A stretch of 64,000 bases of DNA from Actinoallomurus purpureus (lineage in GTDB: Bacteria; Actinomycetota; Actinomycetes; Streptosporangiales; Streptosporangiaceae): positions 186,001 to 250,000 of the forward strand of contig NZ_JAMXMY010000004.1 of assembly GCF_024055795.1 (NCBI RefSeq), read 5' to 3'. Under the pieces are notes generated by a model, which was not told the DNA's origin, did no database searches, and saw only the letters and a program-made list of their open reading frames with translations. Within the stretch, counting starts at the first letter, position 1. Every line of letters starts with the position of its first letter. This document shows, piece by piece, positions 37,063 to 51,528 of the stretch. A program made the translations under genes and the position numbers.

Positions 37063-38157
37063 ATGAGCTACACAGCCCAGTTCGCCCAGACCTACACGCA
37101 GGCCCGCGAGATGTTCCTCGAGGCGGCCGACCTGGCCGGCGCGGAGCTCACATCCTTCCTCAACGACTGCGGAAAAGCGCCTGACGGCGGCGAACTGCGC
37201 ACGGATGTCGCTTGGATCGGCTCCCGCGACTCCGATTCCGTGCTCGTTCTGGTCTCCGGCACCCACGGTGTCGAGGGATTCTGCGGGTCCGCCTGTCAGG
37301 TGGGATTTCTTCGCGAATCCATTCTCGATAAGGCCCCGCCCGGAACCTCTGTTCTGCTGGTCCACGCCCTCAATCCGTACGGATTCGCCTATCAGCGACG
37401 GGTCAACGAGGACAACATCGACCTCAACCGGAACTTCGTGGATCACGACGCTCCCCCGCACAACTCCGCGTACGACGAGTTGCACGACGCCTTGGTGCCC
37501 GCCTCGTGGACCGGTCCGGAGAAGAGCGAGGCGAACCGCTTCCTCGCGAAGATCGGTGCGGAGCGCGGGGTGCGTTACCTCCAGGAGTCGATCACCCACG
37601 GGCAGTACCGTCACCCCGACGGCCTCTTCTACGGAGGCACCTCGCCGGCGTGGTCCCACCGGCTGCTCCGCACGATCGTGCGCGACTTCCTGATCGGCAT
37701 CCCGCGCATCGCCTACGTCGATCTGCACACGGGCCTCGGCCCCCGGGGTCACGGAGAGCCGATCTTCCGCGGCGGGCTGGACAGCGGCGCCCTCGACCGG
37801 GCCCGCGCCTGGTACGGCTCCGAACTCACGATGTCCGAGGACGGAACCTCCAGCTCGACGCCGATCATCGGCAACACGGCGAGCCTGGTCGCCCGTGAGC
37901 TGCCGCCCGACCAGGAGCTGACCGCGATCACCCTCGAGTTCGGCACGCTCCCCGGCAACGAGGTGCTCGACGCCCTGCGCGCCGACAACTGGCTTCACCT
38001 GCAGGCCGACCCCGACCCCGAACTCGCGGCGAGCATCAAGCAGCAGATCCGGAACGCCTTCTACCCGGCGGCGTGCGACTGGCGCAGCGCCGTCTGGTCG
38101 CGCGCCAAGGAGGTCTTCGGGCAGGCCTTCTCGGTCGCTCGCCCGGTGGTCGGCTGA
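37063..38157 (+). CDS. DUF2817 (M14-like) metallohydrolase
   Basis: A 364-residue protein of the zinc carboxypeptidase-like DUF2817 family. The likely zinc ligands are in VSGTHGVEGFCGS (H-x2-E) and YVDLHTGLGPRG (His), with substrate-contact residues in NEDNIDLNRNF. This pattern is shared with M14 peptidases and aspartoacylase/succinylglutamate desuccinylase-type deacylases, so it probably cleaves an amide or acyl group from an amino-acid-like substrate. It begins 20 bp after the RraA-like gene and is followed by a terminator hairpin. Its place beside a biosynthetic region suggests precursor release or deprotection, which is inference. Confidence 0.78.
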   Translation: MSYTAQFAQTYTQAREMFLEAADLAGAELTSFLNDCGKAPDGGELRTDVAWIGSRDSDSVLVLVSGTHGVEGFCGSACQVGFLRESILDKAPPGTSVLLVHALNPYGFAYQRRVNEDNIDLNRNFVDHDAPPHNSAYDELHDALVPASWTGPEKSEANRFLAKIGAERGVRYLQESITHGQYRHPDGLFYGGTSPAWSHRLLRTIVRDFLIGIPRIAYVDLHTGLGPRGHGEPIFRGGLDSGALDRARAWYGSELTMSEDGTSSSTPIIGNTASLVARELPPDQELTAITLEFGTLPGNEVLDALRADNWLHLQADPDPELAASIKQQIRNAFYPAACDWRSAVWSRAKEVFGQAFSVARPVVG

Positions 38158-38513: not shown

Positions 38514-39557
38514 ATGCTGCGCACAGCCGTCGTGGGAGCGACCGGAGCCGTGGGGCATGAGCTTCTCGCCCTGCTGAGCCGACCCGGTATGCCTCCAGTA
38601 CGCCTGTCGCCGGTCGCGTCCGCACGTTCGGCGGGGGTAGACATAGGCGCCCAACTCGGGCTCGACGCACAGATCGAACCGGTCCGTGCGCTCAATGACG
38701 TGGACTTCACGGCCATGGACCTGGTCTTCTTCGCAGCCGGCGCGGAGGTGAGCCGTCAGGTCGCCGAGAAGGCCGCGGCGGCCGGCTGCCTGGTCATCGA
38801 CAACAGTTCGGCGTTCCGTGCACGCGAGGACGTTCCGCTCGTGGTTCCCCAGGTGAACCCCGAGGCCCTGCGGCAACGCCCCGAGTCCAACATCATCGCC
38901 AATCCGAACTGCTCCACCATCCAGCTGGTCCGGGCGCTGCATCCGATCCACCGGCTGGGCGGGCTCAGCCGCGTGTTCGTCTCGACGTACCAGGCCGCCT
39001 CGGGCGGCGGTCTGCGCGGTCTGGCCGAACTCGCCGACGACAGCCGCTCGGTCCTGGACGGACGGGGTGATCTCCATGCGGGCCGGTTCGGACCGCCTCT
39101 CGCCTTCGACCTCGTCCCTCAGATCGGCCTGCTGGACGACCAGGGCGCCGCGCATGAGGAGCGCAAGCTGCGGTCGGAACCTCGAAAGATCATGAGCCTG
39201 CCCGACCTGAGGGTCGACGCCACCGCGGTCCGGGTTCCGGTGTTCCACTGCCATTCCGAGGCCGTCCACGTCGACCTGGAACGTCCCATCTCGGCGGCCG
39301 AGGCCGAGGAGGCCCTCGCCGGGACGGACGGCATCCGGCTGTACCGGTGCGGCGACGTCCCGGCCATCCCCTCACCGCGATCGGTCGAGGCGTCCGGCGC
39401 GGGTCGCGCCCTGGTCCACGTGGGCCGGGTCCGCGTCGACGCATCGCAGCCCGACTCACTGGCCATGTGGGTGGTCGCCGACAATCTGTGGGTCGGCGCC
39501 GCGTACAACGCGATCGACATCATGCGCACGGCCCTCGACTACGGATGGCTCGGCTGA
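38514..39557 (+). CDS. asd: Aspartate-semialdehyde dehydrogenase
   Basis: A 347-residue dehydrogenase. The NADP-binding start AVVGATGAVGHELLALLSR, the catalytic Cys in NIIANPNCSTIQLVRAL, the QAASGGGLRGL segment, and the His region VRVPVFHCHSEAVHVDLE are all present. It converts beta-aspartyl phosphate to aspartate 4-semialdehyde. The start has AAGGAAGGTGCGCG upstream. It overlaps the aspartokinase gene and the pair ends at a terminator immediately before the peptide operon, so this is probably a dedicated second copy supplying a specialised pathway rather than the housekeeping lysine/threonine pathway. Confidence 0.92.
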   Translation: MLRTAVVGATGAVGHELLALLSRPGMPPVRLSPVASARSAGVDIGAQLGLDAQIEPVRALNDVDFTAMDLVFFAAGAEVSRQVAEKAAAAGCLVIDNSSAFRAREDVPLVVPQVNPEALRQRPESNIIANPNCSTIQLVRALHPIHRLGGLSRVFVSTYQAASGGGLRGLAELADDSRSVLDGRGDLHAGRFGPPLAFDLVPQIGLLDDQGAAHEERKLRSEPRKIMSLPDLRVDATAVRVPVFHCHSEAVHVDLERPISAAEAEEALAGTDGIRLYRCGDVPAIPSPRSVEASGAGRALVHVGRVRVDASQPDSLAMWVVADNLWVGAAYNAIDIMRTALDYGWLG

Positions 39558-40783
39558 TGGGCGGGCCGTCCCCGGAGCGGCCGCTGGTGTTCAAGTTCGG
39601 CGGCGCGTGCTTCCTCGACCTGTCCGACTATCGGACCGTCGCGCGGTACATCGCCGGCCGACTGGACGGATCGCGCCGGATCATCGCGGTGGTGAGTGCC
39701 ATGTCGGGCACCACGGGAGCGCTACAGAACGCCCAGCGAGAGCTGCACTCCGAGCCGCCGCCCGAGCTGGCGGCGGCGCTGATGCTGACCGCCGACACCG
39801 TCAGCTCCGTACTGCTGGCGACCGCCCTGTGCGAGCTCGGGGTGCGCGCCCGGTCGGTCGACGCGCATGAGCAGGGACTCCACGCCACCGGGTCACCGGA
39901 ACGAGCACGGGTCGTCAAGATCGATCCTGCCCCCCTGTGGTCGGCGCTCGCCGGGTACGAGGTGGTCGTGGTGCCCGGAGGCCAGGGGGTGGACGCCAAC
40001 AACCGCCCCGTGATGCTGGGGCGCAACAGCTCGGACCTGTCGGCCGTGGCCGCCGCCGTCGCGCTCGGCGCCGACCACTGCGAGATCTTCTCCGACGTTC
40101 CCGGCGTGTACACGGCGGATCCTTATCTCCTGCCGGAGGCTCGGGTGCTCTCCGCGCTGGGGTACGGGGCCGCGCTGCGGATGACCCGCGCCGGTGCGAA
40201 GGTGCTGCATCCGCTCGCGGTCGAGCTGGCCGAACGGCACGGGCTGCCGATCCTCTGCCGCTCGCGTCCCCCGATCGCCAAGCGCGGCACGCTCATCTCC
40301 GGAGCCACCGCGCCGGTGTCGATCATCGCCGACCAGCGGACCGACGTCTGGGCCTTCCCCGACGTCTCCGAACTCGAGCACGTACAGGAGCGACTGGCGA
40401 AGGAGGAGGACGGCGACCAGGTGAACGAGGCGGTCGTCGTGGACTACGAGGGCACCCGGCATCTGGCGATCCCCGGTGGCGACCCTCGCGGGATCGCCCA
40501 CCGTGTCTGCGTCGCGGCGCCGCACCGTCCGGACCTGCGGCTGATCACAACGGTGCACGGCGACCACGAGCCCGAACGGCACCTGGTGCCCGAGTCACAG
40601 CTCGCGGAGGAGACCCGGCGGCGCCATGCGGTGCACTATCCGGAGGTCAACGACCACCGGGGCGTCAAGCCCCGCTCGCCGATGAGCGGCATCCTCACCG
40701 ACCCCGCGAACGCAGCGGACGCCGGCGGGGCCCTTCTCATCAACGGCCAGCCGCCCGTGGTGGAGGAATCCGAGAAGAACTGA
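39557..40783 (+). CDS. ask: Divergent aspartokinase
   Basis: A kinase of about 408 residues from the amino-acid kinase family. Aspartokinase hallmarks are LGRNSSDLSAVAAAVALGADHCEIFSDVPGVYTADP and the GAKVLHPLAVELAE block. The normally invariant K-[FY]-G-G-T-S start is KFGGACFLD here. The C-terminal part lacks a clear pair of ACT domains: after about residue 265 it turns into low-homology sequence ending INGQPPVVEESEKN. Loss of ACT sites would relieve lysine/threonine feedback, as expected for a pathway-specific enzyme. The ATG overlaps the asd stop (TGATG); an in-frame ATG 12 nt upstream is possible. It could phosphorylate an aspartate analogue instead. Confidence 0.8.
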   Translation: MGGPSPERPLVFKFGGACFLDLSDYRTVARYIAGRLDGSRRIIAVVSAMSGTTGALQNAQRELHSEPPPELAAALMLTADTVSSVLLATALCELGVRARSVDAHEQGLHATGSPERARVVKIDPAPLWSALAGYEVVVVPGGQGVDANNRPVMLGRNSSDLSAVAAAVALGADHCEIFSDVPGVYTADPYLLPEARVLSALGYGAALRMTRAGAKVLHPLAVELAERHGLPILCRSRPPIAKRGTLISGATAPVSIIADQRTDVWAFPDVSELEHVQERLAKEEDGDQVNEAVVVDYEGTRHLAIPGGDPRGIAHRVCVAAPHRPDLRLITTVHGDHEPERHLVPESQLAEETRRRHAVHYPEVNDHRGVKPRSPMSGILTDPANAADAGGALLINGQPPVVEESEKN

Positions 40784-40824
40784 GCGGACGCGGCCGCACA
40801 CGCGGCGACCACGCCCGAACACGA

Positions 40825-40856
40825 AGAGCGCAGTGCCGAATACGGCACTGCGCTCT
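40825..40856 (+). terminator. Strong terminator after aspartokinase
   Basis: A perfect 14-bp stem AGAGCGCAGTGCCG (40825-40838) / CGGCACTGCGCTCT (40843-40856) with an AATA loop, followed by TGTG. It separates the asd-ask unit from the peptide operon. Confidence 0.85.
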
Positions 40857-41031
40857 TGTGCGTCACCGGCCTATATATCGCGGCGAAACACATGTCAACA
40901 GGCGGCCTCTGTTATTGCTTTCCTTGATGGCATTGTGAGTCGGGTTGACTCTCGAATCCCCGGATTGGAGTATCAAGGTACGAAAAACAAACAGAGATCG
41001 CCGCCACTAGGGGTCCAGGAGAGGAACTCTG

Positions 41032-42111
41032 ATGTCTGAAGCGGTAGTCGTTGACCCGGCCAAACTGCGCCAGTTCGGTGATCCGATGGACAGCGTGTTC
41101 TGTCTCGTCACCAACCCCGAGCACATGGACCAGATCTCCATCATCGAGAGCGGCGGCTACCGGGATTACCTGAAGATTCCTTTCAAGACCGGAGAACGCT
41201 TCGAGGAAGTGCTCCCGGAGCGGGTCCCCGAGCCGGCGCACGTGCTCGCGATCTCTCCTGAGGCGTTCTTCGAATCCCCCATGCCGGAGCAGCTGGGCCC
41301 CCGCCGCAAGCTCATGGGCATGGCGTGCAACTCGACGCCGACCTCCATCACGACCATCAAGCATTTCATCGACGTGATGCAGCGGACCTCACCCCAGGAA
41401 CAGGACCGCTTCTCCGACGGATTCTTCGACAAGCTGGAGAGAGCCGATCACCTCGTCTACGTCGACGAACGGCACGGCACCCGCGCGACATTGCAGCATC
41501 TCCAGCCGGGCCTCGTGTGGAACCAGCAGGCCGGCTCGCTCGAATGGGGCGAGCAGCAGATCGTCCCCTCCGGGGAGATCAGCGTGCTGCCCACGCAGAT
41601 CGTCGAATTCCACGAGGACCTGCACCTGCCGATCGAGGGTGAGATCACCTTCCGCGGCTACCCCATCCTGCACAGCGGGACCCCGTCCTTCTCCCGTCGC
41701 GACCAGGCCCGGATCCACAGCCGGCTGTCGTCGATGAACCTGCACGGCGTGGTCGCCACGGTCGAGAGGGGCATCATCACGAGCCTGCGCGCCCACCATT
41801 CCGGTGCGCAGTCCGCGGTCGACATGCTGAACACGATGTTCGAGGTCGACTCCCGATACCGCATCGTCTGGGAAATGGGCCACGCGCTGAACACCAGCCT
41901 GGACATCCTTCCCGGAAACCACGCGATGAACGAGGTGTACGGCGGGACCGACGGCTGCCTTCACTGGGGCCTCGGACTCACCCCGTTCACGCAGTTCCAC
42001 CTGGACATCATCTCGCCGGATACGACGGTCTACACGGACACCGGTGAAGTAGTCCTCGGTAACCCCGGCGGCGGGCCGCCGGACCGTCTGGCCGTCTTCC
42101 CCAATTCCTAG
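41032..42111 (+). CDS. M29/NicX-like metalloprotein A (complete metal site)
   Basis: A 359-residue protein related to aminopeptidase T (M29) and to 2,5-dihydroxypyridine 5,6-dioxygenase (NicX). Conserved blocks: LVWNQQAGSLEWGEQQIVPSGEISVLP (about 161-187), GYPILHSG, WEMGHALNTS (E281), MNEVYGG (E301), CLHWGLG (H311) and QFHLDII (H323, D325). The His plus H-x-D set matches the Fe(II) site described for NicX and the metal ligands of M29, so it may be a peptidase, an oxygenase or another metal enzyme. It starts a new plus-strand unit after a terminator and an AT-rich promoter region. It lies 52 bp before the 22-codon ORF and has a paralogue on the other side. Function not established. Confidence 0.7.
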   Translation: MSEAVVVDPAKLRQFGDPMDSVFCLVTNPEHMDQISIIESGGYRDYLKIPFKTGERFEEVLPERVPEPAHVLAISPEAFFESPMPEQLGPRRKLMGMACNSTPTSITTIKHFIDVMQRTSPQEQDRFSDGFFDKLERADHLVYVDERHGTRATLQHLQPGLVWNQQAGSLEWGEQQIVPSGEISVLPTQIVEFHEDLHLPIEGEITFRGYPILHSGTPSFSRRDQARIHSRLSSMNLHGVVATVERGIITSLRAHHSGAQSAVDMLNTMFEVDSRYRIVWEMGHALNTSLDILPGNHAMNEVYGGTDGCLHWGLGLTPFTQFHLDIISPDTTVYTDTGEVVLGNPGGGPPDRLAVFPNS

Positions 42112-42163
42112 CCACGCGCGCGGCTAGTAAGTGACCCTTCTAACCCCGGGAGGAGGTGCCAAA

Positions 42164-42232
42164 ATGGAGGAGAAGGACACCAAGATCGAGGTCCGTAAGA
42201 ACAGCAACTACCTGGGCACGCTGCTTGGCTGA
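42164..42232 (+). CDS. Candidate 22-residue ribosomal precursor peptide
   Basis: ATG at 42164, stop TGA at 42230-42232. The ribosome binding site GGGAGGAGG with a 7-nt spacer is among the best in the window. The peptide has a charged first half (E2, E3, K4, D5, K7, E9, R11, K12) and a neutral tail NSNYLGTLLG. No in-frame upstream start exists. It lies between two paralogous metalloprotein genes, with a perfect 13-bp hairpin just after its stop. Size and charge split resemble PqqA-type minimal precursors, with a leader-like front and a core-like end, but no radical-SAM enzyme is present. It might instead be a regulatory leader peptide. I do not recognise a family. Confidence 0.6.
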   Translation: MEEKDTKIEVRKNSNYLGTLLG

Positions 42233-42267
42233 GCATGCTGATGACAGCCTCCGGGCTGAGTGGTAGA

Positions 42268-42300
42268 GGCAGGTGGACCGGCGCAAGCGGTCCACCTGCC
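42268..42300 (+). terminator. Perfect 13-bp hairpin after the small peptide ORF
   Basis: Arms GGCAGGTGGACCG (42268-42280) and CGGTCCACCTGCC (42288-42300), loop GCGCAAG, no T-run. Placed between the peptide ORF and the next enzyme, it probably works as a partial terminator or 3' RNA stabiliser that raises peptide mRNA over enzyme mRNA, a common layout around precursor-peptide genes. A GTG frame running through it is therefore not the start of the next gene. Confidence 0.75.
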
Positions 42301-42350
42301 CTCCCATCGTACCCCTCCGGAACGTGCCGGCGAAGAATGGGATTGAATCA

Positions 42351-43466
42351 ATGAACGCGGAAAATGGACCTCAGGTCACCGTGCAGCCGAGCGCGTTCCG
42401 TCAGTTCGGCACGCCGGCGGACACCTTCTGCATCATCGTCGACGAGGAGTTCATCGATGAATTCACCGTCGTCCTCGCCCCTCCGTACACGCAATGCATG
42501 ATCGTCCCGATCGGGCCGGACGGTGATCTCGGAAAGCTGCTGTCGACCGACATCCCGCAGACCGCGGACGTCGTGGCGATCTGCCGGCGCACCTTCCTGT
42601 CCTCGCCCGACGCGTCGGCCATCGGTCCGGGCCGGCGCATCGCCGTACTGCCCTGCGCCTCCACCCCGGTCACCGCGGACCAGATCCGCTACTTCCTCCG
42701 GGTCATCGAGCGCACCGACCCCGCCGCTCAGGAAGCCTTCGCCGACCGCTTCTTCGAGGCCGTGAAGAACGCCTCCCACCTTCGGATCGTCGACGCCGAG
42801 CACGGGACCTCCTGCCGCTTCGACCCCTTCGGCGGCGGCTACGTCTGGAACCAGCAGGCGGGCTTCCTCGGCCCCGGTGAGCAGCAGATAGCGCCGGCCG
42901 GAGAGCTGAGCGTGCTTCCGATGGACATCACGGAGTTCGACGAGGACCGGCGCCTGGCGCTGTCCGGCACGCTCGTCCTGCAGGGCTGGCCGATCGTCCA
43001 CGCCGGATACGACCGGGCACTGGACGCGGAGCAGGCGGACCTCTACGAACGGCTGGTCCCGCTGCGCAGGAACGCGCTGGTGCTGACCGTGGAGGACGGG
43101 AGCATCACCGAGGTCCGCGACACCGGGGGAACCGCGGAGGGCGCGGCCCTCGTCGCGGTCTTCGACGAGCTCTTCACCGAAGAACCCCGTTACCGGTCCA
43201 TCTGGGAGCTCGGGTTCGGCATCAACACCGGCATGGAGGTCAGCCCGGCGAACTGCGGGCTCAATGAGACCTATGGCGCCGCCGGCGGCGTCGTGCACAT
43301 CGGCCTGGGCCTGACGCCCTTCACGAAGTTCGCGCTGACCTTCATCTGCCCGACCGTGTCGCTGCTCGACGACGCCGGGACTCTCGTCCTCGGGAACCGA
43401 GCGGGCGCGGAGCAGGGAAGACCGCGGATCAACCGCATCCGGAGCGCGAGCTGCGGCTGCCACTGA
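42351..43466 (+). CDS. M29/NicX-like protein B (degenerate metal site)
   Basis: A 371-residue paralogue of the protein encoded at 41032. The shared blocks are easily aligned: FRQFG near the start, YVWNQQAGFLGPGEQQIAPAG, GWPIVHAG, WELGFGINTG (E286), LNETYGA (E306), VVHIGLG (H316) and LTPFTKF. The H-x-D pair is replaced by A328-L-T330, so the canonical metal site cannot form. It ends in a basic, Cys-containing tail (INRIRSASCGCH) absent from paralogue A. It may be a non-catalytic partner, for example a peptide-binding subunit of a heterodimer. The ATG at 42351 is used; frames starting earlier pass through the hairpin. A di-iron oxidase gene follows. Confidence 0.7.
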   Translation: MNAENGPQVTVQPSAFRQFGTPADTFCIIVDEEFIDEFTVVLAPPYTQCMIVPIGPDGDLGKLLSTDIPQTADVVAICRRTFLSSPDASAIGPGRRIAVLPCASTPVTADQIRYFLRVIERTDPAAQEAFADRFFEAVKNASHLRIVDAEHGTSCRFDPFGGGYVWNQQAGFLGPGEQQIAPAGELSVLPMDITEFDEDRRLALSGTLVLQGWPIVHAGYDRALDAEQADLYERLVPLRRNALVLTVEDGSITEVRDTGGTAEGAALVAVFDELFTEEPRYRSIWELGFGINTGMEVSPANCGLNETYGAAGGVVHIGLGLTPFTKFALTFICPTVSLLDDAGTLVLGNRAGAEQGRPRINRIRSASCGCH

Positions 43467-43501
43467 GGCATGGAACGACATTTGAACAACAGGAGGAGAC
43501 C

Positions 43502-44239
43502 GTGCAGCTGAAGACCGACCGTCCGGAGTTCCGAACCCGTGTCGACAAGTACCTCGACACGGCCATCGCGGACTTCTACGAGAAGATCCCCTTCGCACGT
43601 CACCAGCTCGAGGGCAAGGACATCCACCTCGACTACTACCGGCGGCACAACATCGAGACGATCCTGCGGCTCCGCCGCAAGCGCACGATCGACGCGCTCG
43701 CCATCCGGTACTTCACCAAGGTCGACCCGGTCGCCGCCAAGGCCTGGGCGCACTACACCGACGACGAGATGCTGCACGACCGGCTGTTCGCCGCGGACCT
43801 GGAGAAGGTCGGCGTGTCGAAGGAGCAGATCTACTCGACCGAGCCGCTGCTCTCGACCAAGCTCCTCACCGGGTACCTGGAGTACGGCATCGAGTACGAG
43901 GGCACCCCGCTCGCCCTGCTCGTGAGCGTCTACTTCGTCGAGTACGTGACGACGCGCACCCAGCCGCACTGGCTGGACAACCTGGAGAAGCGGCTCGGCA
44001 AGGAGAAGATCAAGGGTCAGCGCGCCCATGTCGGGACGGACCTGGACGACCACCACGACGACTTCGTCTGGACCGTTCTCGAGACGATGGTCAAGACCGA
44101 GGCCGACGAGGAGAAGGCGCTGCTGCACCTTCAGGACATCTCTCGTCTCTGGCAGATGTACTTCCTCGAGCTGTACAAGATGACCGTCGACGAGAAGGCG
44201 TCGATCGAGCTGCCGGATCCGGTGATGATCCCCGCGTGA
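43502..44239 (+). CDS. Haem-oxygenase-like di-iron oxidase (HDO superfamily)
   Basis: A 245-residue all-helical protein of the TENA/PqqC/haem-oxygenase fold. Likely iron ligands: E89 and H92 in DDEMLHDRLF (E-x2-H), E147 in VYFVEYVT, and H176, D180 and H184 in AHVGTDLDDHHDDF (H-x3-D-x3-H). This is the signature of haem-oxygenase-like di-iron oxidases such as UndA, SznF, BesC and CADD, which carry out N-oxygenation, desaturation, C-C cleavage or similar chemistry. A GTG start with AGGAGGAGAC upstream. Surrounded by amino-acid and peptide enzymes, it is the best candidate for the key oxidative step. The product chemistry cannot be predicted. Confidence 0.82.
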   Translation: MQLKTDRPEFRTRVDKYLDTAIADFYEKIPFARHQLEGKDIHLDYYRRHNIETILRLRRKRTIDALAIRYFTKVDPVAAKAWAHYTDDEMLHDRLFAADLEKVGVSKEQIYSTEPLLSTKLLTGYLEYGIEYEGTPLALLVSVYFVEYVTTRTQPHWLDNLEKRLGKEKIKGQRAHVGTDLDDHHDDFVWTVLETMVKTEADEEKALLHLQDISRLWQMYFLELYKMTVDEKASIELPDPVMIPA

Positions 44240-44273
44240 CCCCGACCCCCTCGACCGTCAGGAAGTGGACCCC

Positions 44274-45092
44274 ATGGCCGTGGCCGACACCGGCACCCTG
44301 GAGATCAGCAACCTGGCGCCGAGCCACGGCCTGGCACCCGACGTCGAGGAGTGGATCGTCGACGGCCTGACCGAGGCGCTGCCGGCGCTCCGGATGAGGT
44401 CGCTGTTCACCCTTCGGCGCGACATGCTCAGGGACGCCGACCTGATCACGCTCGCGGTCGAGACACCGCGCCGTTCGGTGGTCGGTGCACTGTCGTCACG
44501 ATGGTGCACCACACCGGCCGGTGGAGGGTTCCTGCACATCATGACCCAGTTCGTCGGCGAACGACGCCAGGGCGACGGCATCGCGTTCGCCGGCACGTGG
44601 GGGCGCCACATCGAGGGGATCTACGAGAGCACCTCAGAGTTCCCCGAGCTGTGGGTGCTGAAGACGTTCAACCCGATCGTCTACTGCGCGATGCGCGGCT
44701 TCACCCGAGTCCCCGATGTGGCGTTCTATCCCGACATCTACGCGGAGCGGCAGGACCCGCGCATCGTACGGACGGCCGAGCGGGTGGCCGCGATCGCCGC
44801 CCCGGGCCATACGTTCGTTCCCTCGACGGGCATCATCCGGGGCGCCGGCGAGCCCGCAGACTTGTATCCGTGGCTGCCGGAGTCGAGGGACGAGAAGGTC
44901 AACGACTACTTCGCCGCCACCACCCTGCCCGGCGACCGGATGCTGTGCATGCTCAGCATCCCGACACCGGAGGCGGCCGAGACGATCCTCCGGATGTTCG
45001 GCCTGACGCCGACGACACCGCAGGTCCGCCTGGCACGGTCGATGCTCGGTGACCCCGCACCCGCTCCGGCGGGCCGCAGAGACGGAGAATGA
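44274..45092 (+). CDS. GNAT-like N-acyltransferase
   Basis: A 272-residue protein with a GNAT-like pattern: VVGALSSRWCTT and FLHIMTQFVGERRQGDGIAFAGTWGRHI may form the acyl-CoA-binding strand and loop, and LWVLKTFNPIVYCAMRGFTRVPDV resembles the C-terminal GNAT segment. The match is moderate and no N-myristoyl-like or double-GNAT layout is obvious. It has no neighbour-independent assignment. The stop overlaps the next start (ATGA), so it is coupled to the iron-dependent dehydrogenase and belongs to the peptide operon. It might acylate an amine intermediate; this is inference. Confidence 0.5.
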   Translation: MAVADTGTLEISNLAPSHGLAPDVEEWIVDGLTEALPALRMRSLFTLRRDMLRDADLITLAVETPRRSVVGALSSRWCTTPAGGGFLHIMTQFVGERRQGDGIAFAGTWGRHIEGIYESTSEFPELWVLKTFNPIVYCAMRGFTRVPDVAFYPDIYAERQDPRIVRTAERVAAIAAPGHTFVPSTGIIRGAGEPADLYPWLPESRDEKVNDYFAATTLPGDRMLCMLSIPTPEAAETILRMFGLTPTTPQVRLARSMLGDPAPAPAGRRDGE

Positions 45093-46405
45093 TGGACGGC
45101 TGGGCGACCCATCGGGACGGCACCCTCTACCCGCACGAGACGGTCATCACCTGGCAGGCGCCGCCGATCCGCATCGGCGCGGGCGCGACCGCCGAGATCG
45201 GGTACGAGCTGAGCCGGCTCGGCGTCGGCTCCGTCCTGATCGTCACCGACCCGAACGTCGCCCGCGTCGGGCCCGTACGGCGCGTACGCGAGCTGGTCGA
45301 GCAGGCGGGGATCGAGGCCACCGTTTTCGACGAGGTGCGGGTCGAGCCGTCCGACCAGGGGTGTGAGGAGGCCGCCCGCAAGCTGGCCGACCGGCCGGTG
45401 GACGGCTATGTCGCGGTGGGCGGCGGCAGTTCGATCGACACGGCGAAGGTGCTCAACCTCCTGCACAGCCATCCCGACATCCCGCTGCGCGACTACCTGA
45501 ACAAGCCGATCGGCGCCGGCCGGACGATCCCGGGCGTCCTCAAGCCGCTGGTGGCCATGCCCACCACGGCCGGGAGCGGCAGCGAGTGCACCGCGATGGT
45601 CGCGCTCGGCATCACCGACCTGCGGGTGAAGACCGGGATCAGCGACCTGCGGCTACGCCCGTCGGCCTCCATCATCGACCCGCTGAACACCCTCACCATG
45701 CCGCCCGCGGTGGCGGCCGCCTCCGGGTACGACGTCCTGACGCACGCCTGCGAGTCGTACACCGCCCGCGCGTACGACCAGCGCCCGCCGTACCCGTCCC
45801 CGGCCGGCCGGCCGATCTACATCGGGGCCAATCCGATCAGCGACGTGTGGGCGGAGAAGGCCCTCGCGCTGATCGGGACGTACTTCCGGCGGTCGGTGCT
45901 GAACGCCCTCGACGTGGAGGCGCGCACCGCGATGAGCCAGGCGGCCGCCTACGCGGGGATGGGCTTCGGCAACGCGGGGACCCACATCCCGCACGCCTGC
46001 GCCTACCCCATCGCCGGAATGGTCACCGAGTACCGGCCTCGGGACTACATCGTCGACCACCCGCTCGTGCCGCACGGCGAGTCGGTGATCGCCACCGCGC
46101 CCGCGGCGTTCGAGTTCACCTACCCGGCCTCGCCGGAGCGTCATCTGCGCGCCGCCGAGCTGCTCGGCGCGTCGACGGCGGGCGTGACCGTACGGAACGG
46201 CGCGGACCTGCTCCCGCAGACGATCCTGGACATCATGCGGGACACCGGAGGGCCGAACGGTGTCGGCTCCTTCGGCTACGAGACACGGGACATCCCCCTC
46301 CTGGTCGACGGCGCGGCCAAGCAGCAGCGTCTGCTCGTCGGATGCCCGCGCGACGTCACCGCCGACGACCTGACCCGGATCTTCCACGCGTCGATGAAGT
46401 ATTGA
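45089..46405 (+). CDS. Iron-containing alcohol dehydrogenase, hydroxyacid-oxoacid transhydrogenase type
   Basis: A 438-residue group III alcohol dehydrogenase. NAD-binding GGGSSIDTAK and AMPTTAGSGSECT are typical, the metal-binding histidines are in VLTHACESYTAR, GNAGTHIPHACAYPI and VPHGESV, and the length and insert (YRPRDYIVDHPLVPHGE) fit the ADHFE1-like hydroxyacid-oxoacid transhydrogenases. Those interconvert 4-hydroxybutyrate and 2-oxoglutarate with succinic semialdehyde and 2-hydroxyglutarate. Here it may act on a related C4 hydroxy acid or alcohol, for example one made from aspartate semialdehyde. The start overlaps the previous stop. Confidence 0.85.
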   Translation: MMDGWATHRDGTLYPHETVITWQAPPIRIGAGATAEIGYELSRLGVGSVLIVTDPNVARVGPVRRVRELVEQAGIEATVFDEVRVEPSDQGCEEAARKLADRPVDGYVAVGGGSSIDTAKVLNLLHSHPDIPLRDYLNKPIGAGRTIPGVLKPLVAMPTTAGSGSECTAMVALGITDLRVKTGISDLRLRPSASIIDPLNTLTMPPAVAAASGYDVLTHACESYTARAYDQRPPYPSPAGRPIYIGANPISDVWAEKALALIGTYFRRSVLNALDVEARTAMSQAAAYAGMGFGNAGTHIPHACAYPIAGMVTEYRPRDYIVDHPLVPHGESVIATAPAAFEFTYPASPERHLRAAELLGASTAGVTVRNGADLLPQTILDIMRDTGGPNGVGSFGYETRDIPLLVDGAAKQQRLLVGCPRDVTADDLTRIFHASMKY

Positions 46406-46500
46406 CCTTCGGCCCATAACGAGACCGGGCCTGAGGTTGACACCGGGACCGTTCTCCGGGCTCATGGGAGTACCGAAAGATCGCCCATAGGAGACGGCCC

Positions 46501-47958
46501 ATGTCCGTGGCACCTCAGGTACGGCAAGCGCTCATCGGCGGTAAACCCGTGGAGACCGATGACAGCATCGACGTTCTGAACCCCTCGACCGGTGAAGTGT
46601 GCGCGCGCACGGTCCGAGGTGGTTCGCAGGAGATCGACCTGGCGGTCGCCTCGGCGCGAGACGCCTTCGAGGACGGCTGGCGGCACGTCTCCGCGGCCGA
46701 CCGCGCGACGCTCTGCCGGCGGATCGCCGACGCGATCCGCGACCACCGCACCGAACTCGCCGAGCTGGAGACGCTCGACACCGGCAAGCCGCTGTCCCAG
46801 GCGTTCGTCGACGCGGACGCCGCGGCGCGCTACTTCGACTTCTACGCCGGATGCGTCGAGGCGCTGTTCGGCGACACGCTGTTCTCCCAGCCCGACGTGG
46901 TCGCGTACACGCTGCTGGAGCCGTACGGCGTGTGCGGCCACATCATCCCGTGGAACTACCCGATGCAGGTGGTCGCGCGGACCATCGCCCCCGCGCTGGC
47001 CGCCGGGAACACCTGCGTGCTCAAGCCGGCGGAGGACGCTCCCCTGACGCCGATGCGCATCGCGGAGCTGGCCCTGGAGGCCGGGCTCCCGCCCGGAGTG
47101 TTCAACGTCGTCCCGGGGTACGGCGAGGAAGCCGGGGCGGCGCTGGTGGCCCATCCCGGCGTCGACCATCTGGCCTTCACCGGCTCGCGCGAGGTGGGCA
47201 CCCTGGTGATGGCCGGGGCGGCCGCCAACATCGTCCCGGTGACACTGGAGCTGGGCGGGAAGTCACCGCACCTGGTCTTCCCCGACTTCGATCCGGGCCA
47301 GGCCATCCCGCTGATCGTCTCGTCCATCACCGAGCACGCCGGCCAGAACTGCTCGGCGGGATCCCGTCTGCTCGTGCACGAGACGGTGTACGAAGCGACG
47401 GTCGACGCGCTCGCCGCGGCGTTCGAGCGCATGTCGATCGGGCCCGGCCGGACCGACCCGGACCTCGGCCCTCTCATCTCCGCCAAGCAGCGGGACCGCG
47501 TGCTCGGCTACATCGAGCAGGGCAAGAAGGACGGCCGCGTCGTCACCGGCGGAGGGCCGCCGGACGATCCCGAGCTGGCCGGCGGATTCTTCGTGCGGCC
47601 CACCATCTTCGACGAGATCCCGCACGACTCGCGCACCGTGCAGGAGGAGATCTTCGGACCCGTGCTGTGCGCCATCCCCTTCCGGGACACCGCGCACGCC
47701 GTCGAGCTGGCCAATCGCACGTCGTACGGGCTGAGCGCCGGTGTGTGGACCCGCGATGTCGGCCTGGCACACCATCTGGTGCGGGAACTCCGCGCGGGCC
47801 AGGTCTTCGTCAACAATTACAGTGCCGCGGGCGCGGTGGAACTCCCGTTCGGCGGGTACAAGCGGTCCGGATTCGGCCGGGAGAAGGGTTTTGAAGCGCT
47901 CCGGGAGTACTCCCAGTGCAAGGCCGTCGCGGTACGGGTGGGGTCGCCCGAAGCGTAG
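46501..47958 (+). CDS. Aldehyde dehydrogenase
   Basis: A 485-residue NAD(P)-dependent aldehyde dehydrogenase. Motifs: PWNYPMQVVARTIAPALAAGN, FTGSREVG, the general base in LELGGKSPHLVF, the catalytic Cys in AGQNCSAGSRLLVHE, and EEIFGPVLCAIPF. The sequence is of the betaine-/aminobutyraldehyde-/succinic-semialdehyde dehydrogenase type. ATAGGAGACGGCCC precedes the ATG. A 95-bp gap with a TTGACA box near 46438 separates it from the iron dehydrogenase, so it may have an extra promoter. With the previous gene it could oxidise a C4 alcohol to an acid via the aldehyde. Confidence 0.9.
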   Translation: MSVAPQVRQALIGGKPVETDDSIDVLNPSTGEVCARTVRGGSQEIDLAVASARDAFEDGWRHVSAADRATLCRRIADAIRDHRTELAELETLDTGKPLSQAFVDADAAARYFDFYAGCVEALFGDTLFSQPDVVAYTLLEPYGVCGHIIPWNYPMQVVARTIAPALAAGNTCVLKPAEDAPLTPMRIAELALEAGLPPGVFNVVPGYGEEAGAALVAHPGVDHLAFTGSREVGTLVMAGAAANIVPVTLELGGKSPHLVFPDFDPGQAIPLIVSSITEHAGQNCSAGSRLLVHETVYEATVDALAAAFERMSIGPGRTDPDLGPLISAKQRDRVLGYIEQGKKDGRVVTGGGPPDDPELAGGFFVRPTIFDEIPHDSRTVQEEIFGPVLCAIPFRDTAHAVELANRTSYGLSAGVWTRDVGLAHHLVRELRAGQVFVNNYSAAGAVELPFGGYKRSGFGREKGFEALREYSQCKAVAVRVGSPEA

Positions 47959-47974
47959 GACTTGACAGCGGAAC

Positions 47975-48535
47975 CTAACGCGCGTGCGCCTTCCGATATT
48001 GCCGCACCTTGTGGCGATTGCCGCAGGCCTTCATGTCACACCACTGGCGCTGTCCGGGGCGTGACGTGTCGACGAACATCAGCGAGCAGTCGGAAAAGGC
48101 GCATTCGCGGACCCGTTCGAGCCAGGGGCCGGTCAGCAGATCGATGGCGTCCCGCGCCACGGTCGCCAGGCCGGCCTCCACGGTGCGGGCGGAGCGCAGC
48201 GTGACCGATCGGGCGTCCGGTGACAGCTCGGGGGCGAAGTCGGGGTGCACCGCCCAGGAGTTGAGCAGCTCGACGTCGGAGCGTGCCGGCTTGGCCCTGG
48301 TCGCGGGATGAACGAGGCGGTGGACGGCCTCGCGAAGCGCGCGAGCGTCGTCGAGGCCGCGCGGCTGCGCCGGCAGGTCGGCCGGCAGGGACAGCGCCAG
48401 CCGGAACCAGCGCCCGAGGTCGGCCGGGACCGCGAGGCGCTCAACGGGCTCCCGATAACGCCCACCCAGCGTGGCGGCGAAATCGAGACAGAGCCGACCG
48501 CCACGAAATCTGAAGTCGAACTTGTCCTGCGGCAA
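47975..48535 (-). CDS. CGNR zinc-finger/ABATE-domain regulator
   Basis: A 186-residue protein with an N-terminal ABATE stress-binding-like domain (GGRLCLDFAATLGGR...) and a C-terminal CGNR zinc finger (VRECAFSDCSLMFVDTS..., then RQWCDMKACGNRHKVRQYR: C-x4-C and C-x4-C-GNR). Such proteins are usually autoregulating transcription factors. The TTG start is uncertain. It converges on the aldehyde dehydrogenase and diverges from the methyltransferase, so it could control the latter. The palindrome GTCTAGAC (48557-48564) just upstream is a possible operator. Confidence 0.82.
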   Translation of the reverse strand: MPQDKFDFRFRGGRLCLDFAATLGGRYREPVERLAVPADLGRWFRLALSLPADLPAQPRGLDDARALREAVHRLVHPATRAKPARSDVELLNSWAVHPDFAPELSPDARSVTLRSARTVEAGLATVARDAIDLLTGPWLERVRECAFSDCSLMFVDTSRPGQRQWCDMKACGNRHKVRQYRKAHAR

Positions 48536-48929: not shown

Positions 48930-49952
48930 ATGTCCGCTGAGAAGAACGGTGTCTTCGTACCCGGCAACGACCTTCGAGCACAGCTGGAACAGCTGCGCCG
49001 CCATTCGCCGGACGTCTTCCGGCGCATCGACCTGGCCCGCGTCGAATCATGGGAGTGGGACCGCACGCAGGGCGACTCCCATCGGGACGACTTCGATGCC
49101 GACGCCGCGGGCGGCAGGGGCTCGAGCTACGTCCGCGCGCAGCTGGCCAATGTGGACGCCCGCGCCCACGGGATCGGCCGGCTGATGGAGCTGATGCGGC
49201 CGACCCCCGTCAAGCGCGGCGCGGCCGGCCGTCGCACGATCGTCGATCTGCTGGGCGGCAACGGCCTGGTGCGGCAGGTCTGCGCGCGCCTCGGCATCGA
49301 CGACGTCGAAGTGGTGACCTGTGACGCCTCCCCGCACATGGTGGAGACCGCGTGGGCCGCGGGCATTCCGGCGCTGCTCCAGCGTGCCGAGCGGCAGCTC
49401 TTCCAGTCGGAGTCCGTCGAGGGAGTGCTGCTGGCCTACGGCAGCCACCACATTCCTCCGGCGGATCGGGGCTCCGTCGTCAACGACGCCTACCGGGTCC
49501 TCCGGCAGGGTGGAACGTTCCTGCTCCACGACTTCCAAACCGGCTCCCCGATGGACACGTGGTTCACGACGATCGTCCATCCCTATTCGCAGACCGGGCA
49601 CGAGTTCGATCACTTCACCGGCGACGAGATCGAGGAATATCTACTCAAAGCAGGATTCGACGCTTACGAGGTGATCGAAATCGACGACCCGTATACCGCG
49701 ACCGCGCCCTCGCCCGAGGTGGCCGAGCGCAACCTCGGTGAATATCTCGTGAACATGTACGGCCTTTGCAAGAAAGAAGCCGAGCTCGGCGTGGAGGGGG
49801 CGTCCCGCTGGGCCGTGGGGGAGGCCAAGCGGATCTTCCACTATGACGACGGCGAGCCGTTGCACAGCACCATGGAATATGTCGACGACCTCGGCGCCTG
49901 GGAGCTGACGATCCCGCGCAAAGCACTGGTCGGGGTCGGCCGGAAGCTCTGA
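48930..49952 (+). CDS. SAM-dependent methyltransferase
   Basis: A 340-residue class I methyltransferase. The SAM-binding strand is TIVDLLGGNGLVRQVCARLG near residues 100-119, followed by VVTCDASPHMVE and, later, GVLLAYGSHHIPPADR and LRQGGTFLLHDFQ. The first 90 residues form a helical lid. The ATG has GGAGGACAA just before it, which decides the start. It is a single-gene unit between the CGNR regulator and a double terminator. The substrate is unknown; GSHHIPP and the C-terminal domain are reminiscent of methyltransferases acting on small molecules. Confidence 0.78.
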   Translation: MSAEKNGVFVPGNDLRAQLEQLRRHSPDVFRRIDLARVESWEWDRTQGDSHRDDFDADAAGGRGSSYVRAQLANVDARAHGIGRLMELMRPTPVKRGAAGRRTIVDLLGGNGLVRQVCARLGIDDVEVVTCDASPHMVETAWAAGIPALLQRAERQLFQSESVEGVLLAYGSHHIPPADRGSVVNDAYRVLRQGGTFLLHDFQTGSPMDTWFTTIVHPYSQTGHEFDHFTGDEIEEYLLKAGFDAYEVIEIDDPYTATAPSPEVAERNLGEYLVNMYGLCKKEAELGVEGASRWAVGEAKRIFHYDDGEPLHSTMEYVDDLGAWELTIPRKALVGVGRKL

Positions 49953-50271: not shown

Positions 50272-51528
50272 ATGGACCGTTACGCCATTATCGTTGACGC
50301 TTATCACATCCCATTCGGAGACTCCCGGGGATTCGCCAGTGCCTTTCGCAAGCAAGGCATCGCACCGGTCGCCGTTATGAGCACTCCAGAGCCCATGGAG
50401 ACGTTTCTCCCGCGGTGGTTCCCCGAGGACTTCGCCGCCATCCACTACTACGATGGCGATTTCGAGAAACTCGTCGCGACGGTGAAGGGTTACGACCCGA
50501 TCTGCATCGTCCCCGGCCTCGAGCCCGGCGTCGAACTCGCCGGCGAACTGGTCGACGCCGTGCTCCCCGGCACCGGGAACCTGCCGGGGTCCTCCCCCGT
50601 CCACCGGGACAAGGCGCTCATGGCCAAGGCCCTCGAGACGGCCGACGTGCCCCGCATCCCGACGATCTGCTCCTCCGACCCGGAGGAGATCGCCACCTGG
50701 CTCAAGAGCAACGGCCTGGAGGACCGCCCGCTCGTCATCAAGCCCCCGAAGAGCAGCGGCGCCGAGGACGTCCGCCTCATCGAGGCGGGCCAGGACTGGC
50801 GGCCGTACTTCGACCGGCTGATCGGTTCCCTCAACCACTACGGCCAGACCAACGACAAGGTCATCATCCAGGAGTTCGCGGAGGGCACCGAGTACATCGT
50901 CGACCTGTACTCCGTGAACGGGCAGCACGGCCTGGTCGACGTCTGCGTCTACCAGAAGCGCACCAGGGACGGCGAGATCGGCATCTACGACGTCGCCGAC
51001 TTCCTGGCGCCGGACGACCCGGTCGTGGCGCCGCTCGCGGAGTACACCGCACAGGCCGCCCACGCGTGCGGCATCCGCAACGGCTCGACGCACGCGGAGG
51101 TCATGCTCACCCCCGACGGCCCGCGGCTGATCGAACTCGCGGCCCGTTACTCGGGGAGCTGCATGATGTTCTCCGGCGCGCTCGCGACCGGCGACAACCA
51201 GATCGACCGTACGGTCCGGCACTACGTCGACGGGGAGTTCCGGCCGTCGTTCGAGCTGGTCCGCGAGGTGCGGACGGTGTGGCTCGCCGCCGAGAGCGAC
51301 GGCGCCCTGCGCAACATGGACATCTTCGAGGAAGTGCGGGCCATGCCGTCGTTCTACGCCATGAGCCTGCCGGAGAACGGCAAGGTCGTCCCGCAGACCA
51401 CGGGGATGAGCACGAGTCTGGGCTGGATCATCCAGGGCGCGTCCGACTGGGACGCCATCGAGGCGGACTACCGCCGCATCCGGGAGCTGGAGCGCGACCT
51501 CGTCATCGAACCGGTGGCGGAGCGCTGA
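50272..51528 (+). CDS. ATP-grasp ligase 1
   Basis: A 418-residue ATP-grasp enzyme of the carboxylate-amine ligase type. The preATP part spans about 1-110. The ATP-grasp lobe carries VHRDKALMAKALETADVPR, the lysine strand PLVIKPPKSSGAEDVRLIE, VIIQEFAEGTEYIVDLYSV, and the metal-binding THAEVMLTPDGPRLIELAARYSG. Such enzymes join a carboxylate (via acyl phosphate) to an amine, forming dipeptides or amino-acid amides. AAGGATCCC precedes the ATG at 50272; a GTG 75 nt upstream is in frame but without homology. It leads an operon with two more ATP-grasp genes and an exporter. Confidence 0.85.
   Translation: MDRYAIIVDAYHIPFGDSRGFASAFRKQGIAPVAVMSTPEPMETFLPRWFPEDFAAIHYYDGDFEKLVATVKGYDPICIVPGLEPGVELAGELVDAVLPGTGNLPGSSPVHRDKALMAKALETADVPRIPTICSSDPEEIATWLKSNGLEDRPLVIKPPKSSGAEDVRLIEAGQDWRPYFDRLIGSLNHYGQTNDKVIIQEFAEGTEYIVDLYSVNGQHGLVDVCVYQKRTRDGEIGIYDVADFLAPDDPVVAPLAEYTAQAAHACGIRNGSTHAEVMLTPDGPRLIELAARYSGSCMMFSGALATGDNQIDRTVRHYVDGEFRPSFELVREVRTVWLAAESDGALRNMDIFEEVRAMPSFYAMSLPENGKVVPQTTGMSTSLGWIIQGASDWDAIEADYRRIRELERDLVIEPVAER

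What the first reader, a model, noticed from the sequence alone, without database searches (positions are those of the whole stretch)
41032..47958. Candidate undescribed peptide-modification pathway: 22-residue peptide, M29/NicX-like pair, HDO
Seen: seven plus-strand genes plus an unlisted 22-codon ORF in one unit after a terminator: metalloprotein A, peptide, hairpin, metalloprotein B, HDO, GNAT-like, transhydrogenase-like iron ADH, ALDH. Known: haem-oxygenase-like di-iron enzymes do unusual oxidations in natural-product routes, and PqqC, which shares the fold, acts on a product of the similarly short peptide PqqA. Inference: the peptide is matured by the metalloprotein pair and the oxidase, with the later enzymes tailoring or supplying a C4 unit. 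I know of no characterised pathway with this gene set.
Basis: partly seen in the sequence, partly recalled or inferred. Interest (0 to 1): 0.92.

Follow-up and report, generated by a model that had tools for sequence, protein, structure and literature searches.

The report
Conserved tiny-peptide modification gene cluster
A 22-residue peptide gene overlooked in an actinomycete has relatives in bacteria of several phyla that keep the same tail end and sit beside the same metal-binding protein, which points to a little-known route that turns a tiny ribosomal peptide into a small molecule.

Summary
The 22-codon ORF (42164-42232) ends in KNxxYLGTLLG-stop. Of 52 loci examined, 49 carry such an ORF (68 copies); the three without are two contig ends and one decayed cluster. 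A DNA search for the C-terminus alone in 394 genomes gave 15 sites, all beside both A and B.

A and B match no Pfam family. A's predicted fold resembles NicX and crocagin CgnB/CgnE, peptide-binding proteins of a known RiPP pathway. A keeps all six dinuclear-metal ligands (48/48); B lost at least two (43/43). The HDO is nearest to MboA, the mangotoxin acetylenase, with its iron ligands and Tyr base but not its full Arg pocket. HDO and a GNAT-like protein occur together (34 of 52 loci), DUF2817 in 32 of these; AzlC occurs only in HDO-less loci (13 of 18).

The C-terminus is equally invariant where HDO and B are absent, so A, not the oxidase, probably imposes it. Best reading: a crocagin-like but distinct RiPP pathway, with A (plus B) acting on the C-terminus and the HDO as an added oxidation module. 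Product unknown. New variant of a known kind.

The parts
41032..42111 (+). A: M29-fold metalloprotein, CgnB/CgnE-like, all six dinuclear-metal positions kept (E182, E281, E301, H311, H323, D325)
   Evidence: AlphaFold pLDDT 93.9; Foldseek NicX 7cn3 E 5e-13, CgnE 6zsu E 1.6e-11, CgnB 6zsv E 2.5e-11; EEEHHD in 48 of 48 sequences in the A position
42164..42232 (+). precursor/template peptide MEEKDTKIEVRKNSNYLGTLLG
   Evidence: YLGTLLG-stop ORF in 49 of 52 loci, 68 copies; pattern search 15 of 15 sites beside A and B
42268..42300 (+). stem-loop directly after the peptide gene (expression attenuator or 3' stabiliser, inferred)
   Evidence: a stem-loop after the last peptide copy in 46 of 49 loci at z of -2.4 or lower, with unlike sequences
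42351..43466 (+). B: paralogue of A that has lost H323 and D325; probable peptide-binding partner
   Evidence: 38% identity to A; 43 of 43 sequences in the B position lost both residues; tree
43502..44239 (+). HDO: haem-oxygenase-like di-iron oxidase, nearest to MboA
   Evidence: profile hit to MboA 9ypi E 4e-27; ligands E89, H92, E147, H176, D180, H185 and base Y85 invariant in 15 of 15
44274..45092 (+). GNAT-fold acyltransferase, found in every HDO locus and in no other
   Evidence: AlphaFold pLDDT 92.1, Foldseek GNAT structures, best E 5e-6; 34/34 with HDO, 0/18 without
45089..46405 (+). iron-containing alcohol dehydrogenase (optional tailoring or supply)
   Evidence: PF00465; 16 of 34 HDO loci
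46501..47958 (+). aldehyde dehydrogenase (optional)
   Evidence: PF00171; 16 of 34 HDO loci
37063..38157 (+). DUF2817 protein (weakly M14/aspartoacylase-like): candidate releasing peptidase or deacylase
   Evidence: PF10994 E 1e-121, AstE_AspA 7e-4 below cut-off, MpaA 1e-3 below cut-off; 32/34 HDO loci, 0/18 others
36410..37042 (+). RraA-like aldolase family protein
   Evidence: below cut-offs; PF03737 for the L017 homologue; 11 of 52 loci
38514..39557 (+). aspartate-semialdehyde dehydrogenase
   Evidence: NF011456 355 bits, cut-off 223
39581..40783 (+). aspartate-kinase-like protein without recognisable ACT domains
   Evidence: PF00696 only; NCBIfam models shown are below cut-off
40824..40857 (+). 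15-bp hairpin between the AK-like gene and A
   Evidence: z -6.1; not a consensus terminator
47975..48535 (-). CGNR-type regulator, named by eye from its likeness to the scanned L022 gene; not scanned itself
48930..49952 (+). methyltransferase
   Evidence: PF08241; 6 of 34 HDO loci
50272..51528 (+). ATP-grasp amino-acid ligase 1
   Evidence: PF13535, NF005543; 19 of 34 HDO loci
51539..52783 (+). ATP-grasp amino-acid ligase 2 (LAL_C2)
   Evidence: 10 of 34 HDO loci
52780..54054 (+). MFS-like transporter
   Evidence: weak, below cut-offs
54084..56678 (+). ATP-grasp ligase fused to an M20 dipeptidase
   Evidence: 8 of 34 HDO loci

Best explanation
The locus is a RiPP-type pathway that makes a small molecule from a tiny ribosomal peptide. 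The peptide has a variable Lys-rich leader and an invariant C-terminus, KNxxYLGTLLG. A, an M29-fold metalloprotein of the crocagin CgnB/CgnE kind, binds that C-terminus and does, or directly enables, the first metal-dependent step (inferred). B, its copy without the second metal site, helps to bind or present the peptide. In this cluster the MboA-like HDO then oxidises a residue at or near the C-terminus, most likely by desaturation. The GNAT-like protein and DUF2817 act with it, as acyl transfer and release or deacylation. The released amino-acid-like unit is joined by ATP-grasp ligases and exported by MFS; most related clusters without HDO carry AzlC, a branched-chain amino-acid exporter family, instead. 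Shown here: peptide conservation, A-peptide linkage, metal-site conservation and loss, HDO ligand set, module co-occurrence. Inferred: every chemical step, the order and the product.
For: Peptide in 49 of 52 loci (68 copies), 16-29 residues, 23 distinct core DNA sequences. The motif was the search term in that count; the looser pattern turned up no near-variant beside an intact A, only YLGTPLG in the decayed L064 and a few chance hits on other frames. Pattern for the C-terminus alone in 394 genomes: 15 sites, 15 of 15 beside A and B, 0 in the 376 genomes without an A/B-type protein, reversed control 0. Two to four tandem copies in 10 of 52 loci. Stem-loop after the peptide in 46 of 49. Fold of A matches CgnE and CgnB; crocagin precedent in PMC10070186. 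Metal positions intact in 48/48 A, damaged in 43/43 B. HDO profile hit to MboA E 4e-27 with six ligands and Tyr base. HDO+GNAT 34/34 against 0/18; DUF2817 32/34 against 0/18. No HDO at E 0.001 genome-wide in eight genomes that keep the peptide. Where A has decayed (Parafrankia) the peptide has decayed too.
Against: No product, transcript or protein datum exists here. A's sequence profile finds no meaningful PDB chain, so the CgnB/CgnE link rests on predicted fold alone (14-16% identity), and NicX scores a better E-value though a lower TM to target. The HDO substrate is unproven: MboA acts on a tripeptide, two of its three Arg-pocket residues are not kept, and no MboB-like reductase is among the window-cluster genes scanned. 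With a C-terminal Gly there is no side chain to desaturate, so Gly would have to be removed first, or the HDO acts on another molecule. DUF2817 could be a deacylase rather than the releasing peptidase. Three Frankiaceae genomes of the 18 with an A/B-type protein lack the peptide: one has a broken A, in two I saw only a B-type gene (one of these in pieces) in the 3.6-4.1 kb fetched.
Confidence: 0.68

Rival explanations
1. Carrier model: the peptide is a scaffold whose C-terminal Gly is extended with an amino acid that is modified while attached and then cut off, as in PEARL pathways or LysW-type amino-group carriers. Nothing of YLGTLLG ends up in the product.
For: An amino-acid kinase, a semialdehyde dehydrogenase and ATP-grasp ligases lie beside the peptide, the same enzyme kinds as LysZ/LysY/LysX (recalled). 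A strictly invariant C-terminus fits a carrier well.
Against: ATP-grasp ligase 1 is found in 19 of 52 loci and ASD in 18 of 52; in five proteobacterial loci the unit is peptide, A, AzlC and an AzlD-like gene. No LanB-like PEARL domain among the window-cluster genes scanned with Pfam. ASD passes the cut-off of an aspartate-type model.
Confidence: 0.17
2. Regulatory leader: the ORF is an attenuator-type leader peptide whose translation (three Leu codons) controls read-through of the hairpin into the downstream gene.
For: A strong hairpin follows the ORF in 46 of 49 loci.
Against: Leu codons vary (CTG, CTC, CTT, CTA, TTA, TTG) while the C-terminal amino acids do not; 10 of 52 loci carry 2-4 tandem copies; in the actinobacterial loci A lies upstream of the ORF, in the proteobacterial ones downstream; the neighbour has the fold of peptide-binding proteins.
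Confidence: 0.05
3. The peptide is itself the end product (signal or antimicrobial peptide), processed by A as an M29-type peptidase and exported.
For: M29 relatives are peptidases; A keeps the six metal positions.
Against: No peptide exporter in the unit of the minimal clusters; AzlC/AzlD is a branched-chain amino-acid transport family. The crocagin authors saw no aminopeptidase activity for CgnB and CgnE (PMC10070186). HDO, GNAT and ligase modules would be unexplained.
Confidence: 0.08

Closest known systems
Crocagin biosynthesis (CgnA, CgnB, CgnC, CgnD, CgnE; Chondromyces crocatus)
   Same: About 20-residue Lys-rich precursor with a very short C-terminal core, next to a pair of M29-fold paralogues, one with an intact dinuclear metal site and one with a damaged one; an iron oxygenase in the cluster.
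   Different: C-terminus is YLGTLLG, with no Trp; no CgnC-type Fe/2-oxoglutarate dioxygenase among the window-cluster genes scanned; HDO+GNAT+DUF2817 instead, or no HDO at all; the second copy lost other metal residues (H323, D325).
MboA of mangotoxin biosynthesis (PDB 9YPI, 9YPL, 9YPM)
   Same: HDO with the six iron ligands, the Tyr82 base (Y85 here) and Asp90 (D93 here); ATP-grasp ligases in the same cluster.
   Different: Arg-binding residues N57 and D139 are Lys and Val here (D61 is kept); no MboB-like reductase among the window-cluster genes scanned; a ribosomal peptide and the A/B pair are present.
NicX (2,5-dihydroxypyridine dioxygenase) and M29 aminopeptidases
   Same: Same overall fold as A.
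   Different: A keeps all six positions that bind two metals in CgnB, whereas NicX has a mononuclear iron site (recalled); no Pfam M29 match at E 0.01.
PEARL (ammosamide, 3-thiaglutamate) and PqqA/PqqC pathways
   Same: A short ribosomal peptide gives rise to an amino-acid-like or small-molecule product (PEARL: abstracts in the listing; PQQ: recalled).
   Different: No LanB-like ligase and no radical SAM family among the window-cluster genes scanned; the HDO does not match PqqC chains by sequence.

Membership tests
Crocagin-type pathway | Short Lys-rich precursor within 1.5 kb of the CgnB/CgnE-type genes | tested here: met
   16-29 residues, near A in 49 of 52 loci
Crocagin-type pathway | Conserved Tyr-Trp at the C-terminus of the precursor | tested here: not met
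   the window peptide ends YLGTLLG, and no peptide with another ending was seen beside an intact A in the looser search
Crocagin-type pathway | CgnC Fe/2-oxoglutarate dioxygenase homologue | tested here: not met
   no such family in the window-cluster genes scanned; other loci were not scanned gene by gene
Crocagin-type pathway | CgnD-type SGNH/GDSL hydrolase for release | tested here: not met
   DUF2817 in the window, S9 peptidase in nine HDO-less loci; SGNH class of CgnD from a passage in PMC10885120
Crocagin-type pathway | Tetracyclic product | not testable with these tools
   needs chemistry
CgnB/CgnE protein family | Fold of CgnB/CgnE | tested here: met
   four chains, E 1.6e-11 to 2.2e-10, TM to target 0.64-0.69; only A was modelled, not B
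CgnB/CgnE protein family | One copy with intact and one with damaged dinuclear site | tested here: met
   48/48 intact (A), 43/43 damaged (B)
CgnB/CgnE protein family | Detectable sequence relation | tested here: inconclusive
   the profile of 40 sequences finds no PDB chain at a meaningful E-value (one chance hit at 1.2)
HDO, MboA-like | 3-His/3-carboxylate di-iron ligands | tested here: met
   E89, H92, E147, H176, D180, H185 align with the MboA ligands and are invariant in 15 of 15
HDO, MboA-like | Tyr base and Asp90 | tested here: met
   Y85 and D93 invariant in 15 of 15, placed by the alignment
HDO, MboA-like | Arg pocket N57, D61, D139 | tested here: not met
   K, D, V at these positions in the alignment: one of three kept
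HDO, MboA-like | Dedicated MboB reductase | tested here: not met
   none among the window-cluster genes scanned; the rest of the genome was not searched
PEARL pathway | LanB-like peptide aminoacyl-tRNA ligase | tested here: not met
   none among the window-cluster genes scanned with Pfam
PQQ pathway (PqqA/PqqC) | PqqC-like HDO and PqqE-like radical SAM enzyme | tested here: not met
   PDB searches of the HDO give MboA, 3dde and one chance hit, not PqqC; no radical SAM family in the window-cluster scans

The most novel reading that the evidence does not exclude
A-type proteins are a new class of peptide-modifying metalloenzyme. On their own they convert the C-terminus of a 16-residue ribosomal peptide into an amino-acid-like metabolite, which Proteobacteria export with AzlCD. 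The same core reaction is shared by Actinobacteria, Chloroflexota, Cyanobacteria and Proteobacteria, and actinomycetes have added a di-iron HDO module that would bring HDO chemistry into a ribosomal-peptide pathway, a pairing for which my search found no paper.
Probability: 0.38. Interest if true: 0.92.

Novelty: new variant of a known kind. Interest (0 to 1): 0.8.

Why it matters
The peptide's last seven residues are identical from Acinetobacter to Frankia and Nostoc, which is unusual for a RiPP core and implies a single, precise chemical use. The comparison of clusters with and without B and HDO assigns that constraint to one protein of unknown chemistry. The crocagin work left the catalytic role of CgnB-like proteins open; the minimal peptide + A + AzlCD operons make it directly testable with two genes in E. 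coli. The HDO part would extend di-iron desaturase chemistry to ribosomal peptides. The motif YLGTLLG-stop is a specific marker for mining such clusters (15 of 15 sites in 394 genomes beside A and B), which annotation can miss because the ORF is so short.

Tried and rejected
Chance ORF: rejected by the pattern search (15 sites in 394 genomes, reversed control 0, all beside A and B) and by 49 of 52 loci.

HDO as the reason for the conserved C-terminus: unlikely. 18 of 52 loci show no HDO; 16 of these 18 carry the peptide, L016 and L064 do not. Two of the 18 (L016, L048) are cut by their contig, and L024 and L057 are short, so their absence is not firm. A genome-wide search with the HDO profile found nothing at E 0.001 in eight peptide-bearing genomes: the Nostoc, four Proteobacteria and three Streptomyces (the same query had found 14 of 276 genomes). 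But three Streptomyces (S. olivoreticuli, S. griseocarneus 132, UNOC14_S4) hold one HDO-bearing and one HDO-less cluster each (loci L018/L029, L055/L022, L019/L024 by the titles), so HDO could act in trans there.

B as the reason: unlikely, since four proteobacterial genomes have a single match to the A/B profile genome-wide and keep the motif (G604-G607).

Closest HDO as PqqC: rejected. Rfam families in 36000-57500: none at gathering score. Intrinsic terminators and sigma-70 promoters by consensus in 40600-48700: none. Phage records: no match to A. 292 genomes of the phylum of Nostoc gave only the Nostoc already known; 369 genomes of the class of Noviherbaspirillum gave that genome and one distant new member. 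None of the seven same-genus genomes searched has A, so the cluster is patchy.

Single origin of B: the tree allows it (B is one side of a branch, support 68/96, 72% of bootstrap trees) but the base is weak and long branches meet, so I do not claim it.

The hairpin z-scores compare with mononucleotide shuffles scanned at a coarser step, so they are somewhat generous; three of 49 loci (L019, L055, and L048 with Ns) do not pass -2.

antiSMASH 7 has a crocagin rule (passage) that may already flag some of these loci.

Full report
What is there. The window lies in a 9.25-Mb genome of the family that also holds Sphaerisporangium corydalis and a Thermomonosporaceae MAG. Within 41032-47958 the plus strand carries A, a 22-codon ORF, a hairpin, B, an HDO, a GNAT-like protein, an iron ADH and an ALDH. 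The cluster is wider: upstream an RraA-like protein, DUF2817, an aspartate-semialdehyde dehydrogenase and an aspartate-kinase-like protein without recognisable ACT domains; downstream a methyltransferase, two ATP-grasp ligases, an MFS-like transporter and an ATP-grasp/M20 fusion.

The peptide is a real gene. A scan of GTDB contigs with five A homologues gave 50 loci. Together with the window and a Paraburkholderia plasmid this makes 52. Of these, 49 have at least one ORF that ends in YLGTLLG-stop, 68 copies in all; 39 loci have one, two have two, seven have three and one has four. The three without are L016 and L063 (contig ends) and L064, a decayed Parafrankia cluster; the Chloroflexota genome of L063 has the peptide at a second locus. 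The ORFs are 16-29 residues long with a variable, Lys-rich start; K at -4 and N at -3 before the Tyr are the same in all 68 copies. The 23 distinct core DNA sequences differ at synonymous positions, which by itself is forced by the search term; the weight lies in the looser search, which saw no other ending beside an intact A. I also ran a test free of A: a degenerate DNA pattern for the C-terminus over 394 genomes of the class. It hit 15 sites in 15 genomes, the reversed control pattern hit none, and all 15 sites lie within 1.5 kb of both A and B on the same strand. Of the same 394 genomes 18 have an A/B-type protein. The three of these without the peptide are Frankiaceae-like (G507, G521, G569): G507 has a broken A beside B, G569 shows only a B-type gene, and G521 shows a B-type gene in pieces.

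A natural experiment. In Parafrankia (L064 and the matching L083) B is intact, A is in fragments with two metal residues replaced, and the peptide remnant reads ...IRVESYLGTPLG without the KKN part. Peptide and A decay together.

What A and B are. Neither matches Pfam or NCBIfam at E 0.01. The AlphaFold model of A is confident (pLDDT 93.9). Foldseek finds NicX (E 5e-13), crocagin CgnE and CgnB (E 1.6e-11 and 2.5e-11, higher TM to target, 0.68 against 0.54) and M29 aminopeptidases. In crocagin biosynthesis (PMC10070186; I read parts 1-4 of 6 of the main text) CgnB and CgnE bind the 21-residue precursor CgnA and appear to bring it to the dioxygenase CgnC; CgnB has a dinuclear zinc site that is disrupted in CgnE; the authors think CgnB catalytic and CgnE not. 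The six CgnB ligands have counterparts in A: E182, E281, E301, H311, H323, D325 (my alignment by order and spacing). All 48 sequences in the A position that I examined keep them (one of these is the distant Streptomyces protein of L015); all 43 in the B position have lost H323 and D325, many also others. That is the same intact-plus-damaged pairing as in crocagin, with other residues lost.

What the HDO is. Its profile hits MboA, the mangotoxin acetylenase, at E 4e-27. The six iron ligands that the MboA paper names, the Tyr82 base and Asp90 align with residues invariant in all 15 family members aligned (PMC13185094 read in parts 1-3 of 6). Two of three Arg-binding residues are not kept, and no MboB-like reductase is among the window-cluster genes scanned. 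MboA without MboB stops at the alkene, so a single desaturation of a residue other than Arg is the natural guess. In 276 genomes, 12 close orthologues (E below 1e-128) all lie in genomes that have A; five weaker paralogues (E 3e-29 to 1e-55), two of them in genomes without A, were not followed.

Modules. By tblastn over the 52 loci (recount), 34 have the HDO; all 34 also have the GNAT-like protein and 32 DUF2817, while none of the 18 other loci has any of the three. ATP-grasp ligase 1 is in 19, ASD in 17, Fe-ADH and ALDH in 16 each, AK in 15 of the 34; these are lower bounds, since contigs and the 10-kb flanks cut some loci. The 18 others are nine Streptomyces/Streptosporangium loci with an S9 peptidase (AzlC in eight of them), five proteobacterial loci with AzlC where the unit is peptide, A, AzlC and an AzlD-like gene (AzlD there named by likeness, Pfam-scanned only in L022), a Nostoc locus, the decayed L064, and L016 and L048, which are cut by their contigs. 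AzlC is in 13 of the 18 and in none of the 34. For four of the Proteobacteria a whole-genome search found one A-type gene and no second copy, and no HDO. Three Streptomyces genomes hold one cluster with HDO and one without, which suggests two different products. Frankia clusters add a siderophore-type importer and an LLM oxidoreductase.

Reading. YLGTLLG is equally invariant with and without HDO and with and without B. The only other shared element is A, so A is the likeliest reader of the C-terminus. In the minimal proteobacterial units there is no other modifying enzyme, which makes catalysis by A likely, though unproven. AzlC export suggests a product the size of an amino acid. In the window the HDO module would then act on the A-dependent intermediate; MboA and four other HDOs bind their substrate through Fe1, in MboA by its C-terminal carboxylate, which fits a C-terminal substrate. 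DUF2817 could be the releasing carboxypeptidase or a deacylase paired with the GNAT. I hold the general scheme at 0.68, the HDO acting on the peptide-derived residue at about 0.5, and name no product.

The hairpin. A strong stem-loop of changing sequence follows the last peptide copy in 46 of 49 loci at z of -2.4 or lower, whether A lies before or after. It may set a surplus of peptide message over the next gene, as is common for RiPP precursors (recalled).

Novelty. 'YLGTLLG' is in none of the held PMC papers. Searches for M29 with RiPP, for CgnB or CgnE with crocagin, for crocagin alone and for HDO with RiPP listed no paper on such clusters by title; I opened passages in four of the listed papers and did not open the rest. 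The 2023 paper states that its two-copy clusters all have a CgnC homologue, which the window cluster lacks. Its supplementary peptide lists and those of the MboA paper could not be read, so prior listing cannot be excluded. I therefore file this as a new variant of a known kind: it looks like the crocagin system in how the substrate is handled, but fails defining tests of a crocagin cluster (no Tyr-Trp core, no CgnC, no CgnD).

Noticed in passing
L064:9183-11047 and L083: Parafrankia cluster in decay: A in fragments with metal residues replaced, peptide remnant SYLGTPLG, B intact.
   Followed up: partly
L015:9781-9921, L066:3799-3921, L067:3781-3921, L068:3799-3921: Streptomyces plasmids with a distant A homologue (about 28-30% identity) directly after a 40-46-residue ORF ending SSRISKYGKYDRLEG, beside NRPS genes: a second peptide class for this protein family.
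   Followed up: partly
L109:1302-1457: In a genome of the class of Noviherbaspirillum a distant A homologue follows a 51-residue ORF ending RHSWCDTIA, perhaps a third peptide class.
   Followed up: no
L018/L029, L019/L024, L055/L022: Three Streptomyces genomes hold two peptide clusters each, one with the HDO module and one without (titles, content).
   Followed up: no
L044:2186-9135 and other Frankia loci: Frankia versions carry a FecCD/BtuC-type importer, a binding protein, an LLM oxidoreductase and an amidohydrolase-like gene (by eye) next to the cluster, which may point to a metal-binding or re-imported product.
   Followed up: no
L057:2159-2614, L059, L062: A small Cys-rich protein that looks like the GFA/formaldehyde-activating fold (by eye; no Pfam or NCBIfam hit at 0.01) recurs in Nostoc and Noviherbaspirillum loci.
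   Followed up: no
window 54084-56678: Fusion of an ATP-grasp amino-acid ligase with an M20 dipeptidase in one protein; matches in 8 of 34 HDO loci.
   Followed up: no
window 57659-59614: Large regulator-like gene downstream that looks like a SARP/AfsR type (by eye, not scanned).
   Followed up: no
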